NCBI GenBank assembly: GCA_029719485.1
Contig: CP120722.1
Location: forward strand, 1,178,001-1,242,000
Origin: Kiritimatiellota bacterium B12222
GTDB lineage: Bacteria; Verrucomicrobiota; Kiritimatiellia; SS1-B-03-39; UBA6053
Reading direction: 5' to 3'
Length of the DNA stretch: 64,000 nt
Numbering within the stretch: the stretch's first letter is position 1; each line of letters opens with the position of its first letter. The position numbers were made by a program, and so were the translations under genes. Below, piece after piece: positions 15,684-22,492 of this stretch. A model generated the notes under the pieces. The model did not search any database, was not told where the DNA came from, and was given only the letters and a program-made list of their open reading frames with translations.

Positions 15684-18263
15684 ATGTCCCATTATCCTTT
15701 TTCAGAAATTGAACCCAAATGGCAACGTCATTGGTCAGAGCAACAAACCTTCCGCACGCCGGATGAGATTGATACCTCTAAACCCAAATACTACGTTTTG
15801 GATATGTTTCCCTATCCGTCGGGCGATGGATTGCATGTGGGGCATCCTGAGGGTTATACCGCCACGGATATTTTGGCGCGGTACAAACGGATGAAAGGCT
15901 TTAACGTTTTACATCCCATGGGCTGGGATGCCTTTGGTTTACCTGCGGAGCAATATGCGTTGCAAACGGGAACGCATCCTGAGGTGACCACGAAAAAGAA
16001 TATAGATCGGTTTCGTGAGCAATTGCAGTCTTTAGGATTTTCCTATGATTGGCAGCGTGAAATCTCCACGACCGATCCTGATTACTTTAAATGGACGCAG
16101 TGGATCTTTCTGAAGCTGTTTGAAAAAGACTTGGCCTATGAAGCGGAAGCTCCGGTGAACTGGTGCCCTGAATTGGGGACGGTGTTGTCGAACGAAGAGG
16201 TGGTGAATGGGAAATCCGAGCGGGGGAATCATCCGGTGGTGCGTAAGCCCATGCGTCAGTGGATGTTGAAAATCACGGCTTATGCCGAACGGTTGATCGA
16301 TGATTTGGAGTTGGTGGACTGGCCGGATAGCATTAAAGAAATGCAGAAGAACTGGATTGGGAAATCTGAAGGGGCTGAAGTTGATTTTGCGGTGGCGGGG
16401 CAAAATGCTGCATTGCGGGTGTATACCACGCGTCCGGATACCTTGTTTGGTGCGACTTACATGGTGGTGGCGCCTGAGCATCCTTTGTTGGAGCAATTGG
16501 TGACAGACGAAACGCGTGACGCGGTTGAGGCCTACAAAACAGCTGCTGCCAACAAATCTGATTTGGAGCGTACCGAATTGGCCAAAGGCAAAAGTGGGGT
16601 GTTTACCGGAAGCTATGCGATTAATCCTGTGAATGGTCAGCAGATTCCCATTTGGACATCGGACTATGTATTGATTTCTTACGGGACCGGCGCGATTATG
16701 GCGGTGCCTGCACATGATGAACGCGATTACGAATTTGCGAAAACTTTTGATTTGCCGATTATCGAAGTGATTTCCGGTGGAAATATCGAAGAAGAAGCTT
16801 TCACGGGCAATGGTGTATTGGTGAATTCTGCGAATGATGAGATTTCGTTAGACGGCATGGAAGTGGCTGAATCTAAAGCGGCGATCACCGCGTGGTTGGA
16901 AGAGAAAAAAGTGGGAGCAGGAAAGGTAAATTACAAATTGCGGGACTGGCTGTTTAGCCGTCAACGCTATTGGGGTGAACCTTTTCCTTTGACCCATGTA
17001 GATGGCAAAGTGGTGCCGGTATCGGAAAGTTTGCTGCCGTTGATGCCACCGATCGTGGATGAATACAAACCCAGCCCCGATGGTGATCCACCCTTTGCCC
17101 GTAATCAGGAGTGGGTAAATACCACAGATCCGGAAACGGGAAAACCTGCGCGTCGCGAATGTAACACCATGCCCCAATGGGCGGGCAGTTGCTGGTATTT
17201 CTTGCGTTATATTGACCCCAGTAACAACGAAGCCCTGGTGGATCCCGAAAAAGAAAAATACTGGATGCCAGTCGATTTGTATGTGGGTGGCGCGGAACAC
17301 GCTGTTTTGCATTTGCTCTACGCCCGTTTCTGGCACAAAGTGCTGTTTGATTGCGGCGTGGTGAGTCATCCTGAACCTTTCCATCGCTTGGTGAATCAGG
17401 GTATGATCCTCGGGGATATGGAATACACCTTGTATCGAAATGCGGACGGAAAGGTCGTGAGTGAATCCGAAGTGAAGAATCGCGAAGATGAATTTACGGC
17501 CGAACGCATACCTGAAGCGGATGCGGTGAAAAAAGGTGAAAGCTTTGTTTGGAAAGAAGACCATACGATTCGTCTGCGTGCGAAAGCGAATAAGATGTCG
17601 AAGAGCCGTGGCAATGTGATCAATCCCGATGATGTGGTCAAACAATACGGTGCGGACTCCTTACGTTTATACGAAATGTTTATGGGTCCCTTGGAGCAGG
17701 TAAAACCATGGTCCATGAAAGGGGTGGAAGGGGTGTTCCGCTTCTTAAATAAAGTTTGGCGGATGTTTGAAATTCCTTTGACCGACGAAGCTTGCGATAA
17801 AGATCAGGCGCGATTGTTGCATGGATTGATCAAAAAAGTCACCGAAGATATCGAAGGCTTGCGCTTCAACACTGCGATTGCCGGCATGATGGAATTTGTG
17901 AATGCCGCGGGAAAATGGAAGGCTTTACCTCAAGAAGCTGCGGAAGCATTTGTATTAGTTTTGAATCCTTTTGCACCACATATGGCGGAAGAGTTATGGG
18001 CGAAAATGGGTAAAACCGAGGCACTTTCTTATGTGGAATGGCCTGCATTTGATGCGGCGGCTTTGGTGGAAGACGAAGTTGAAATCTTGGTGCAGATCAA
18101 AGGGAAGCCTGTCGCGCGGATGAACGCGTCGCCTGCGGCGACGGCTGATGAGTTGATTGCGATGGCGAAAGCTATACCTGAAGTTGCATCCGCGATTGAA
18201 GGCAAACGATTGGTGAAGGAGATTGCCGTGCCGGGTCGCTTGGTGAATCTGGTGGCGGTGTAA
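15684..18263 (+). CDS. leuS: Leucyl-tRNA synthetase
   Basis: 859 aa, the usual length. The class I HIGH-type motif is [20 protein letters not shown] near residues 42-61 and KMSKS occurs in [14 protein letters not shown]. The CP1 editing insertion ([20 protein letters not shown], with [12 protein letters not shown]) is present, so the enzyme should proofread mischarged tRNA-Leu. An AGG lies 9 nt before the ATG. Its TAA stop codon lies inside the terminal repeat of the downstream REP element. Confidence 0.97.
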
Positions 18264-18360
18264 CTCAGGCATTCCTTCCTGAAGGAGTTGAGGCTTTCAG
18301 CCTTCTTTTTCAGAGCAAGGCTGAAAGCCTCGGTTCCTTCAGACTGAAAGTCTGAGTTAC
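18260..18360 (+). repeat. REP-like palindromic element, copy A
   Basis: A 101-bp element bounded by GTAACTCAG at the left and CTGAGTTAC at the right. Inside are CCTGAAGGA paired with TTCCTTCAG, and an inner perfect 15-bp stem GAGGCTTTCAGCCTT / AAGGCTGAAAGCCTC with a 12-nt loop. GGAG sits just before the inner hairpin, like the conserved tetranucleotide of REP elements. Two further copies lie at 19297-20593 (interrupted by an IS110) and 21232-21338. Confidence 0.9.
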
Positions 18361-18378
18361 TCTATCCAGAAAACCAAA

Positions 18379-19269
18379 ATGACAACCCATCCCTACAAAA
18401 CCATTCGCTTTTCTGGCTACCTTATCTGTGTGTTGCTAGGTTTTGGGTTTTTCTACGCCTGGTTTAAGGCAGATCAGGAGATGTTTCAACTTGCGACCTA
18501 TGGAGCTTCCGCAAGTATGGATCTCCTTGAGCATTTCCCTTGGTTTCATCAAATGATGAAGCTTTCGCGTGTCGATTTATTATATAACTATGGATCACTG
18601 GCAGAACCCAATGCCGTACTCTCGGAGTTTTGGTTTCAAATGCGGGTTCAGCAACAGCTTGCGATGGCGCTTGGATTGGCAGGGTTTTCCGGCTTGCTTC
18701 AAGGGTGGAATGTAAAGCGACTAGCACAAATTCTGTTGAAAAGCCTACAGCTTTTATGTCTGGTGCTCGCTCTCCTCAAAACAATACAAGTGGGTTGGGT
18801 GGTACTTACGACGCCACGCTATGCGCCAATATTGACAGAAAATACCGTGGACAATTTCCTATATCAAATGATGTATTTTGACCAAGGGGAGAATAGTATT
18901 TCAAGCATGTATATGGTGTTACCACGCCATCAGGGAGGCATTGTCCCTTCTGAAGGCGAAGCGGATATACATCTTATACTTTCTCGTCAGGGGGATTTTC
19001 AGTTAGGAACCGCTATCTATACACCCGCCGCTCTTGAAGGGGTTTTTGTTGCTGTGCAGGAGAAATATGGATCCTGTATGGTTTATATTTGGACAGAAGA
19101 TGACGTGATTCTTCATAATCACTGGGTAATTGATCGTATTAAGTCCTTGAGGCAGAAGTACATGACACCGAACTGGTACTGGGTCGTGGAGACTGACAAT
19201 GTGGTGCAAGGTCATCCCGAAATCAGAGCCTTGCCGTTTGATGAGTTGGAGGTAAAACAGGCATTTTAA
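18379..19269 (+). CDS. Membrane-anchored protein with an ExbD/TolR-like C-terminal part
   Basis: 296 aa, not recognised as a named family. Hydrophobic segments occur at about 12-30, near 92-108 and 113-135. The C-terminal region (about 185-285) has the alternation ADIHLILSRQGDFQLG, then AALEGVFVAVQEKYG and VIDRIKSLRQKY, which loosely resembles the periplasmic domain of ExbD/TolR proteins. That resemblance is an inference from pattern only. It lies between REP copy A and the IS110-interrupted REP copy B, in the mobile island. Confidence 0.5.
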   Translation: MTTHPYKTIRFSGYLICVLLGFGFFYAWFKADQEMFQLATYGASASMDLLEHFPWFHQMMKLSRVDLLYNYGSLAEPNAVLSEFWFQMRVQQQLAMALGLAGFSGLLQGWNVKRLAQILLKSLQLLCLVLALLKTIQVGWVVLTTPRYAPILTENTVDNFLYQMMYFDQGENSISSMYMVLPRHQGGIVPSEGEADIHLILSRQGDFQLGTAIYTPAALEGVFVAVQEKYGSCMVYIWTEDDVILHNHWVIDRIKSLRQKYMTPNWYWVVETDNVVQGHPEIRALPFDELEVKQAF

Positions 19270-19296
19270 CTGCTGGGATTCAGGCTGAAAGCCGGT

Positions 19297-19310
19297 GTAA
19301 CTCAGGCATT
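19297..19310 (+). repeat. REP copy B, left fragment split off by the IS110 insertion
   Basis: GTAACTCAGGCATT is identical to the left end of REP copy A. It ends exactly at the TT core that is repeated at the other end of the IS110 element (20502-20503), where the rest of the REP resumes. Confidence 0.85.
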
Positions 19311-19325
19311 TGTATCTTCTGAATG

Positions 19326-19334
19326 TGCTATACT
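19326..19334 (+). promoter_or_regulatory. Extended -10 promoter element for the bridge RNA/transposase
   Basis: TGCTATACT matches an extended -10 (TGnTATAAT) with one mismatch. It lies just inside the left end and would place a transcript start near 19341. No good -35 hexamer is seen in the integrated form. Confidence 0.5.
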
Positions 19335-19341
19335 CCACATT

Positions 19342-19540
19342 GTCCTAGAGGGCCTTTGCCCCTAAGGAGTCCTAGCTGGGGTGGCCACCCCAGCTAGGAC
19401 GGTGTGAGTGAGATTCGTCAGGCATAAGAACCTTGAGTTCGCGCAGGAGCAAAATCCCTCGCACCCACTTTCGTGAAAACTCGAACAGTTGCATGAGCCA
19501 GTGGTAGGCCAGCCCAGAGCTCGGATTACAAGTAGGAGTA
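19342..19540 (+). ncRNA. Candidate bridge RNA of the IS110 element
   Basis: Structure read by eye: a small hairpin (GGGC-CTTT-GCCC, 19350-19361), then a perfect 16-bp palindrome (19369-19400). Next is a target loop closed by GGTGTGAG (19401-19408) with CTCGCACC (19458-19465) and GATT/AATC, capped by GAAC-CTTGA-GTTC (19428-19440). Its left strand TCAGGCAT (19418-19425) equals the left target flank, and its right strand GCAGGAGCAA (19443-19452) is the exact complement of core plus right flank. A donor loop closed by ACTC/GAGT (19479-19482, 19536-19539) has ACAGTT (19485-19490), identical to the right end plus core, and TACAA (19527-19531), complementary to core plus left end. This matches the IS621 bridge RNA architecture. 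Confidence 0.82.
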
Positions 19541-19549
19541 TACGATACC

Positions 19550-20485
19550 ATGAATGGCATCCAAATAATAATCGGCATAGATGTTTCTAAAGCCTCTTTG
19601 CAAATCAGCACCTTTGATAAAGGGAAAGCACTGATACCTAATACCGCTGCAGGAATCCGTAGTCTAATAAACCGGACAGAAAAGTTGAAATCCTCATTTA
19701 TTTTTTGCTGTGAAGCTACGGGAGGATATGAACGTCTTTTCGTCGATCACTGTCATACATATGACATCCCAGTGGCGGTTTTAAATGCGAGGCAAGTACG
19801 GGACTTTGCCCGTTCTAAAAATATCTTAGCCAAAACCGATGCCATCGATGCCGAAGTCATCAGGATGTTTGCAGAGAATAATGACCTGCGTTTATACCCT
19901 AAACCTGAATCCTGGAGGTTAAGTCTTCAAGCCCTTCTCACCCGGAGGGATGAACTTAAAGACATGATCACCCAAGAACGCAATCGACTCGAAACCCTTC
20001 AGGATCCCTTGATCCGTAAAATGATCAAGGCGCATCTGCGCTCATTGGCGTCTCAGGATAAACGTTTGATAATAGAGCTTAAAGACTTAGTATCTTCCCA
20101 TGAATCACTCCGGGTATTTTGCGATAGACTCATAAGCGTGAAGGATATCGGTCTACTCTCAGCACTCAGTCTGTTCGCCTATCTTCCTGAACTAGGCCAA
20201 ATTACAGACAACCAGGCAGCCGCCCTCGCGGGCCTCGCTCCATGGTGTCAGGATAGTGGCAATTGGAAAGGTGAACGTCATATCTCAGGTGGACGCTCCA
20301 AAGTCCGAAGAGCTTTATATATGCCTGCAATCAACGCAAGTACATCGAACCCTATCTTAAAAGAATATTATCAAAAAATGATCCGGCGGGGTAAACCCGC
20401 AAAAGTGGCTTTAACTGCGGTGATGAGGAAAATGGTCTGTCTTGCCAATAAGGTCGCTTCAGACCCCGATTTCATCCCCGCATAA
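19550..20485 (+). CDS. IS110-family transposase (DEDD recombinase)
   Basis: 311 aa. The N-terminal RuvC-like DEDD domain has D11 (IGIDVSK), E55 (CCEATGGYE), D97 and D100 (AKTDAIDA). A coiled-coil-like middle is followed by the C-terminal Tnp_20 domain (AALAGLAPWCQDSGNWKG, then RHISGGRSKVRRALY) that carries the family's catalytic serine, here probably one of the serines in NASTSNP. IS110 recombinases use a bridge RNA to pair donor and target. Nothing is truncated, so the gene looks functional. AGGAG at 19534-19538 is 11 nt before the ATG and is partly inside the donor-loop stem of the bridge RNA, which could couple RNA folding to translation. Confidence 0.95.
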   Translation: MNGIQIIIGIDVSKASLQISTFDKGKALIPNTAAGIRSLINRTEKLKSSFIFCCEATGGYERLFVDHCHTYDIPVAVLNARQVRDFARSKNILAKTDAIDAEVIRMFAENNDLRLYPKPESWRLSLQALLTRRDELKDMITQERNRLETLQDPLIRKMIKAHLRSLASQDKRLIIELKDLVSSHESLRVFCDRLISVKDIGLLSALSLFAYLPELGQITDNQAAALAGLAPWCQDSGNWKGERHISGGRSKVRRALYMPAINASTSNPILKEYYQKMIRRGKPAKVALTAVMRKMVCLANKVASDPDFIPA

Positions 20486-20501
20486 TCTTTTCGAAAGACA
20501 G

Positions 20502-20593
20502 TTGCTCCTGCCTGAAGGAGTTGAGGCTTTTAGCCTTCTTTTTCAGAGCAAGGCTGAAAGCCTCGGTTCCTTCAGACTGAAAGTCTGAGTTAC
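20502..20593 (+). repeat. REP copy B, right part
   Basis: Begins with the TT core and GCTCCTGC, then CCTGAAGGAGTTGAGG, the inner hairpin (one mismatch, CTTTTAGCC) and the right end CTGAGTTAC. It is nearly identical to copy A from CCTGAAGG onward. Its last bases supply the TAA stop of the RAYT gene on the opposite strand. Confidence 0.9.
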
Positions 20594-21177
20594 ATCAACC
20601 AATACGCTCCGTTTTTTAGACCTGCTTTTTTGGGGTTCTCATTGATGTAGCGGAAGTAATGTTGGTATTCCTTTTCGTTGCGTACAATGTGATCATAGGT
20701 TTCGGGCATCCAGAAGGGGCCGCTTGTTCCGAGGATCTGATTGCAGTTGCGGGAGCTGGCGCCTTTGATGCCCTGCATGATTTTCGATAAACGCTGTTCA
20801 TGCAGAGGTTCCATGAGTGCATGGACATGAGTGGGCATGATCACGGCATGATGAATATGGACCCGGGTTTTATGGAAGCGAAGTAGGAAGGTCTTCACTT
20901 GTGCTCTGCAATCCCGCCTGCTTAAGGTGCAGGAGCCGTAACCGGCATCGAGCCAGTTTTCATATCGTTCCCCAAAGCTCATGTGGTATTCGCGTGACAC
21001 TTTTGGGGACCAGGGTTTGGGATGGAGGGTCATCCATATGTCCCTTTCCCGTTGCTATTGATTCATTTTTTGGCAGGGGATGGCGTCGACGAGTCGGAAG
21101 GTGATCCAGTAGATAGCGCCGGTTTGGGTCCAGTGGGGGAGGTTACGTTTTGTTTTGTATATCTGTGAGTGGTTCAT
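20590..21177 (-). pseudogene. REP-associated tyrosine transposase (RAYT) interrupted by an amber codon
   Basis: Reading from ATG 21177 gives 40 codons (NLPHWTQTGAIYWITFRLVD, the typical RAYT opening), then TAG at 21055-21057, then the same frame continues to 20590 through ATG 21033 (147 aa). The downstream part holds the Y1 transposase HUH pair (VIMPTHVHALME) and the catalytic-tyrosine region (ETYDHIVRNEKEYQHYFRYI, then NENPKKAGL). RAYTs nick and mobilise REP elements. Two REP copies flank this gene. The 147-aa piece keeps the catalytic residues but lacks the first beta strand, so inactivity is likely but not proven; reinitiation at 21033 or amber readthrough is possible. Confidence 0.85.
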
Positions 21178-21231
21178 ACCCGCTTGAAAGCGGGGGAAGT
21201 CACATTTTCCGCAAAAAAAGTGAAAAAAAAG

Positions 21232-21338
21232 GTACTCAAGTATGATGCCTGAAGGAGTTGAGGCTTTTCGCTTGCCGATTTACGAGGGTTGTGAGAGGCT
21301 GAAAGCCTCGGTTCCTTCAGGCTGAAAGCCTGAGTTAC
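21232..21338 (+). repeat. REP-like palindromic element, copy C
   Basis: Left end degenerate (GGTACTCAAG), then CCTGAAGGAGTTGAGGC as in the other copies, a diverged loop, GAGGCTGAAAGCCTCGG and the right end GCCTGAGTTAC. Same orientation as copies A and B. Its terminal bases provide the TAA stop of the PfkB gene on the minus strand. Confidence 0.88.
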
Positions 21339-22492
21339 AGTCTTTCGGGTAGGCTGCCTGCGGCCCAGGATTCGACGAAGGTAATGAGGTCGTGGATAGC
21401 GGGAGTGCGTCCGGAGCGAACGTAGTAACCGCTGGTGCTGTTGCCGGTAAGGAGCATGCCTGCATTATCGAGTCCCAGTAAACAGGCGGCCATACAACCC
21501 GCACCAAAGTTGTCGCCTGCTCCCGTTGAAATGAGGGGGCTTTGGCAGTAGGGGCCAGGTACAAAGGTGCACCCATCGGCATCGGCACAGGCCGCGCCAT
21601 CATTGGGGTGGATGATGATTTTGTCTACATCGAGGTTTTTGCGGAGCAACAAGGCGAGCTCGGTGACCGCCTTTGCATCTTTTTTGCCTTGAAAATTCCC
21701 ACCAAAACGATCGCCCATTTGCCAGGCTTCTTTGAGGTTAAAACTCATCAGGGTGGTGAACTGAGCTGTGATTTCAGAGAGCCGCGCAATGAGACCTTGT
21801 ACGTCTGCTTCACTGCGATGTTCAAATTCAGCAAGATCCATAAAACAGAAAACCTCTTTGGCGTTTCGCCCCAAAGCTTTCGAGCGGGTGGCAAGATAGG
21901 ACCAGATATCGCCGACGTGTGGAAGTTTTCCCCAGTTGACTGCAGAGATGAATGCGGTGTTCTGGAGCTCCTGATCGATCGCATCTTGTCCCATAACCTT
22001 GAGCATGCGTGCTAGGGTAATTTCTTCGCAGGCGTCAAAATCGCCTAACATGATTTTGCCATCGGTAAATTCCATGCAGTCGCTGTGTGCGGGAGGAGCG
22101 ATGGTGAAAAGTCGATTAACTTTGCCGGCTAAGGCCTCGGCAAAAATGGGGGCAACCTTACCCTCGCCGAGACCTCCAACATAACTGAGGTCTGCTTGAT
22201 TCGAGAAGAGGTCACTGAACGCTGCCACAAAAAGCGGGCCGTTTCCGCCAAACTTGTCACCTTGATGGTCGACAGCATACGAGGCGGCAATGCCTGCGGC
22301 TTGGGCTACTTTGGGACCAAACTCTTTCATGGAATCCGGTTGGCGCATGCGAATGAGGGTATCTATAAATCCATCAAATCCCACCATGCCCGTAAATGTC
22401 GATGAGGGTGGATCAAGGAGCTTTTCGCGGAATGAGGGAATTAAGGCGCAGAGGTCATCGATGTTTTGATAGAGATGGGTTGTCGGATTCAT
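21335..22492 (-). CDS. PfkB-family carbohydrate kinase
   Basis: 385 aa. The ribokinase-fold signatures are GFDGFIDT with a preceding VGFDG near residue 37, KFGGNGPL, and the ATP/active-site motif ISTGAGDNFGAGCM near the C-terminus with the catalytic aspartate. It phosphorylates a sugar or nucleoside; the substrate cannot be fixed from the sequence. It follows the DUF1365 gene by 41 nt on the same strand and may be the end of that operon. Its stop codon is formed by REP copy C. Confidence 0.85.
   Translation of the reverse strand: MNPTTHLYQNIDDLCALIPSFREKLLDPPSSTFTGMVGFDGFIDTLIRMRQPDSMKEFGPKVAQAAGIAASYAVDHQGDKFGGNGPLFVAAFSDLFSNQADLSYVGGLGEGKVAPIFAEALAGKVNRLFTIAPPAHSDCMEFTDGKIMLGDFDACEEITLARMLKVMGQDAIDQELQNTAFISAVNWGKLPHVGDIWSYLATRSKALGRNAKEVFCFMDLAEFEHRSEADVQGLIARLSEITAQFTTLMSFNLKEAWQMGDRFGGNFQGKKDAKAVTELALLLRKNLDVDKIIIHPNDGAACADADGCTFVPGPYCQSPLISTGAGDNFGAGCMAACLLGLDNAGMLLTGNSTSGYYVRSGRTPAIHDLITFVESWAAGSLPERL

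What the first reader, a model, noticed from the sequence alone, without database searches (positions are those of the whole stretch)
19297..20593. IS110 element with a decipherable bridge RNA whose guides match both its REP target and its own ends
Seen directly: the two strands of the first loop upstream of the transposase are TCAGGCAT (19418-19425), identical to the left flank 19302-19309, and GCAGGAGCAA (19443-19452), exact complement of the right flank plus core TTGCTCCTGC (20502-20511). The second loop has ACAGTT (equal to right end plus TT core) and TACAA (complement of core plus left end). Established: IS621 (IS110 group) uses a bridge RNA with target- and donor-binding loops. The agreement of four guides with four element ends, all meeting at the same TT core, gives the exact boundaries and target specificity of a probably undescribed bridge-RNA recombinase with a non-CT core.
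Basis: partly seen in the sequence, partly recalled or inferred. Interest (0 to 1): 0.92.

Follow-up and report, generated by a model that had tools for sequence, protein, structure and literature searches.

The report
IS110 element with bridge RNA

Summary
In detail: all four guide/end matches are at the stated coordinates. The element is a single-copy IS110-group insertion sequence with intact DEDD/Tnp20 recombinase, all catalytic residues, and a bridge RNA upstream that a covariance model built only from relatives finds once in the whole 4.43-Mb genome (40.9 bits).

The 'non-CT core' claim does not stand as written. Forty comparable elements and a six-copy relative fix the family's ends as RE ...ACAGTTG|CT and CT|TGTATC... 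So the element is 19311-20504. Its left core is 19309-19310 = TT, its right core 20505-20506 = CT. RTG and RDG both encode CT.

What remains unusual: a TT target core joined by a CT donor core, left TT in all four copies of this lineage. IS621 is already reported to tolerate TT. New member of a known kind.

The parts
19311..20504 (+). IS110-group element (LE 239 bp, recombinase, RE 19 bp), corrected boundaries
   Evidence: ends aligned with 40 relatives and six-copy relative; joined flanks fit REP without gaps
19302..19308 (+). left target (LT) TCAGGCA in REP
   Evidence: identical to LTG
19309..19310 (+). left core, TT (target-type)
   Evidence: position before conserved LE TGTATC; REP paralogues have TT here
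19311..19316 (+). right donor (RD) TGTATC, start of LE
   Evidence: conserved LE start in relatives
19329..19334 (+). -10-like TATACT; with TTGCTT across the circle junction (20502-20504+CT+19311), 17-nt spacer
   Evidence: suggestive only
19369..19400 (+). 5' stem-loop of the bridge RNA region
   Evidence: folding, perfect 16-bp inverted repeat
19401..19465 (+). target-binding stem-loop of bridge RNA
   Evidence: covariance model R1 match 19396-19536; fold z -3.85
19418..19424 (+). left target guide (LTG) TCAGGCA; next two nt (core positions) are TA
19443..19449 (+). right target guide (RTG) GCAGG plus AG = complement of CT core
   Evidence: complement of 20505-20511
19450..19452 (+). target-loop handshake guide CAA, complement of donor TTG 20502-20504
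   Evidence: first base covaries with donor position 7 in relatives, 33/34
19485..19491 (+). left donor guide (LDG) ACAGTTG
   Evidence: identical to RE 20498-20504; covaries (ACCGTTG, ACTGTTG, ACGGTTG) with RE in relatives
19527..19532 (+). right donor guide (RDG) TACAAG = complement of CT+TGTA
19533..19533 (+). donor-loop handshake guide T, pairs with LT position 7 (A, 19308)
   Evidence: covaries with LT position 7, 34/39
19550..20485 (+). IS110 recombinase, 311 aa, DEDD + Transposase_20
20498..20504 (+). left donor (LD) ACAGTTG, end of RE
   Evidence: conserved in relatives
20505..20506 (+). right core, CT (donor-type)
20507..20511 (+). right target (RT) CCTGC, continuing into REP
20507..20593 (+). 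right part of the interrupted REP composite
   Evidence: 98% identical to 18273-18360
18256..18360 (+). uninterrupted REP paralogue, the empty-site comparison

Best explanation
An IS110-group insertion sequence working like IS621. Its LE encodes a bridge RNA whose first loop (LTG TCAGGCA, RTG GCAGGAG) reads a REP palindrome loop and whose second loop (LDG ACAGTTG, RDG TACAAG) reads the RE-LE junction of the excised circle. The recombinase joins target and donor at a dinucleotide core. The donor core is the usual CT; the target core in this host's REPs is TT. The present copy kept the target's TT on the left and the donor's CT on the right, as expected from top-strand exchange just 3' of the core followed by replication or repair of the mismatched cores. 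Shown: anatomy, ends, guide matches, guide and handshake covariation. Inferred: RNA is made, recombinase is active, TT was the target core at insertion, strand polarity.
For: PF01548+PF02371; 2e-31 and 1.7e-30 to ISCro4 and IS621 with D11, E55, D97, D100, S236 in the catalytic positions. R1, trained without this element, finds 19396-19536 at 40.9 bits, one hit in the genome; 15 of 26 model pairs show compensatory change. Flank-swapping among 40 elements: LTG matches 201 vs 176.8+-3.7, RTG 260 vs 197.3+-4.2, 0 of 1000 each. Handshake pairs 33/34 and 34/39, 0 of 5000 permutations each. Six copies in one relative all follow the same rule with CT cores. Empty-site reconstruction fits the REP without gaps only with these ends.
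Against: One intact copy in the genome; no orthologous empty site found in the four same-genus genomes. Bridge RNA scores lower than many relatives. LTG core position 9 is A, not T, and in the 93% sister copy position 8 is A as well. Left TT could be later mutation or lineage drift, though four copies share it. Right ends of the other three lineage copies are deleted.
Confidence: 0.88

Rival explanations
1. One reading: core TT at 19310-11/20502-03 in both donor and target, a recombinase with a shifted non-CT core.
For: TTG is shared by both ends; GCAGGAGCAA pairs through TTG.
Against: GTTG at the RE is conserved in relatives with unrelated targets and is followed by CT; donor-loop handshake T pairs with A19308, which is LT position 7 only with the corrected ends; leaves 4 extra bases in the empty REP; the 15 places matching the predicted 18-mer with 3 mismatches are no closer and none of the REP copies listed is among them.
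Confidence: 0.04
2. Target core was CT; the left copy mutated to TT after insertion.
For: 39 of 40 elements with both ends readable have left CT.
Against: Four copies of this lineage at four loci in two genomes all have left TT; uninterrupted REPs have TT at that place.
Confidence: 0.1
3. A relic: guide matches survive but the element is no longer active.
For: Single copy; sister copies in G311 are decayed.
Against: Intact ORF, catalytic residues, ends and guides.
Confidence: 0.25

Closest known systems
IS621 (IS110 group, E. coli; PMC11208160, PMC11208158)
   Same: DEDD/Tnp recombinase with the same catalytic residues, LE bridge RNA with target and donor loops, REP target, CT donor core, handshake guides
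   Different: distant recombinase (109.5 bits); another REP family and other guides; TT target core joined to CT donor core; LTG core positions TA
ISCro4 (solved structure 9t56)
   Same: closest solved recombinase by sequence (112.6 bits)
   Different: distant; other host and target
IS110-family insertions in REPs (PMC1525189); ISPpu9 (PMC8450116)
   Same: insertion into REP palindromes
   Different: other REP and IS lineages
seekRNA of IS1111/IS110 (PMC11187229)
   Same: the same idea, an RNA guiding target choice
   Different: IS1111 members carry the RNA region in the RE with subterminal repeats; here it is in the LE

Membership tests
IS110 family | DEDD_Tnp_IS110 and Transposase_20 domains | tested here: met
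   77.4 and 47.6 bits, above cut-offs
IS110 family | catalytic D, E, D, D and S | tested here: met
   D11, E55, D97, D100, S236 invariant in A1 and aligned to IS621 D11, E60, D102, D105, S241
IS110 group (not IS1111) | long LE with bridge RNA, short RE | tested here: met
   LE 239 bp, RE 19 bp; R1 hit in LE
IS110 group | two-loop bridge RNA conserved with relatives | tested here: met
IS110 group | guides complement target and donor | tested here: met
IS110 group | CT core at both ends | tested here: inconclusive
   right CT, RTG and RDG encode CT; left is TT
IS110 group | handshake guides reading the other DNA partner | tested here: met
   CAA and T; covariation in relatives
IS110 group | circular intermediate and RNA-guided recombination | not testable with these tools
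   needs cells or purified protein
Rfam families | match to a curated RNA family | tested here: not met
   no match over a gathering score at 18000-22000, none in the LE

The most novel reading that the evidence does not exclude
A lineage that habitually inserts a CT-core donor into TT-core REP loops and keeps the two cores apart: target TT always stays on the left and donor CT on the right, so each insertion records which strand was exchanged and the donor core is never overwritten by the target.
Probability: 0.4. Interest if true: 0.45.

Novelty: new member of a known kind. Interest (0 to 1): 0.36.

Why it matters
It shows that the bridge-RNA code can be read from one raw genomic copy of an undescribed element, including the handshake guides, and it offers a natural case of mismatched target and donor cores. 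Such asymmetric junctions let the strand-exchange model of IS621 be checked against natural insertions, and they warn that shared dinucleotides at the two ends are not enough to place an IS110 core.

Tried and rejected
The micro-RNA family hits in Rfam at the REPs are palindrome artefacts far below gathering scores. The 20 places with ATTTGTATC[CT]T fetched from same-genus genomes G309, G311 and G312 as possible solo ends are chance matches, not copies. Orthologous empty site via the upstream gene: no match in four same-genus genomes. A circle-junction promoter is present in the closest relatives but not general in the set. A first attempt to align all target loops with MAFFT and RNAalifold gave no structure because the mixed set was misaligned; a cleaner set of 20 worked. 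The script printed nothing (its search pattern was too strict).

Full report
Check of the observation. The loops match the flanks and ends far beyond chance. The recombinase ORF is 19550-20485, 311 aa, with the two IS110 domains above cut-off. It is the only IS110-family recombinase found in the genome.

Where the element ends. I fetched relatives from the same class, 80 loci from many phyla and the copies of a six-copy relative. Printed side by side, the right ends read ...ACAGTTG|CT (or ACCGTTG, ACTGTTG, ACGGTTG, each copied in the donor guide of the same element) and the left ends CT|TGTATC or TGTATG or TGTCTC. In the window this puts the element at 19311-20504, with 19309-19310 = TT as left core and 20505-20506 = CT as right core. 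Among 40 distinct elements with both ends readable the left core is CT in 39 and TT only here. A few rows with right core 'AC' are a one-base register shift (ACAGTTGA|CT).

Three independent checks agree with these ends. Other REPs in the genome read CTCAGGTATTCCTACC and ATCAGGCATTTCTGCC. Second, RTG (GCAGG+AG) and RDG (TACA+AG) both end in AG, the complement of CT. Third, the nucleotide after the RDG pairs with the last base of the left target in 34 of 39 elements (21.2 expected on shuffling, 0 of 5000), and the nucleotide after the RTG pairs with the last donor base in 33 of 34 (27.6 expected, 0 of 5000). These are the handshake guides of the IS621 structure paper (PMC11208158). In the window they are T19533 (pairs with A19308) and C19450 (pairs with G20504), which fixes the core next to those bases.

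GCAGGAGCAA pairs with TTGCTCCTGC because the RTG reads the right target plus core, and the following CAA reads the last three donor bases; the ten bases are the right junction as it exists after strand exchange.

The bridge RNA. Twenty relatives gave a consensus of 26 pairs, 15 with compensatory changes. The model, which does not contain the window's element, hits 19396-19536 at 40.9 bits and nothing else in the genome at E below 0.001. The region folds better than 200 shuffles, z = -3.85. Swapping flanks among elements destroys the guide matches. In the six-copy relative, five copies with the same loop sit in targets matching it, and the sixth, with altered LTG and RTG, sits in an accordingly altered target.

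The cores. IS621 cuts the top strand just 3' of the core. Joining a TT target with a CT donor then gives LT-TT-LE and RE-CT-RT on the top strand, which is what the window shows. Same-genus genome G311 holds a 93% identical partial copy in TTAGGCA-TT-CCTGCCTAA, a second partial copy after GCGGGCA-TT, and an older decayed copy after CAGACA-TT. All four have left TT; in three the right end is lost. If either strand's core were kept at random, four of four has a chance of 1 in 16, so the bias is only suggestive. LTG position 8 is U in the window and in one G311 copy, matching TT, but A in the 93% copy, so guide adaptation to TT is not established. IS621 is reported to accept TT cores (PMC11208158).

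Verdict. A new IS110-group member that follows the published bridge-RNA rules. The host is probably of the Kiritimatiellae class, judged only from named relatives among the hits. Activity, transcription and circle formation are inferred.

Noticed in passing
L083:54-79, L216:1384-1409, L069:2253-2277, L005, L184-L187, L219 and others: A subset of related IS110 elements carries, between the left end and the bridge RNA, a long hairpin with variable stem and conserved GAGAATGGG...CGTCGGA inside; no Rfam family matched it in four loci. Absent from the window's element.
   Followed up: partly
window 20590-21033 (-): Y1_Tnp (IS200-like) protein of 147 aa directly beside REP copies, a likely RAYT that mobilises the REPs used as target.
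   Followed up: partly
L145 (reverse complement about 1406-1750): Copy in G311 with an internal deletion joining the recombinase (GATACCT) straight to the right target CCTGCCTAA, leaving LE, bridge RNA and the first codons only; the shared CCT suggests a microhomology deletion.
   Followed up: partly
window 20502-20504 joined to 19311-19334: The excised circle would bring TTGCTT 17 nt before TATACT (extended -10), weaker in the integrated form; the same spacing in L003, L004, L010, L012.
   Followed up: partly
L153 about 1500-1635: Another G311 fragment of the element breaks off inside the right target guide.
   Followed up: no
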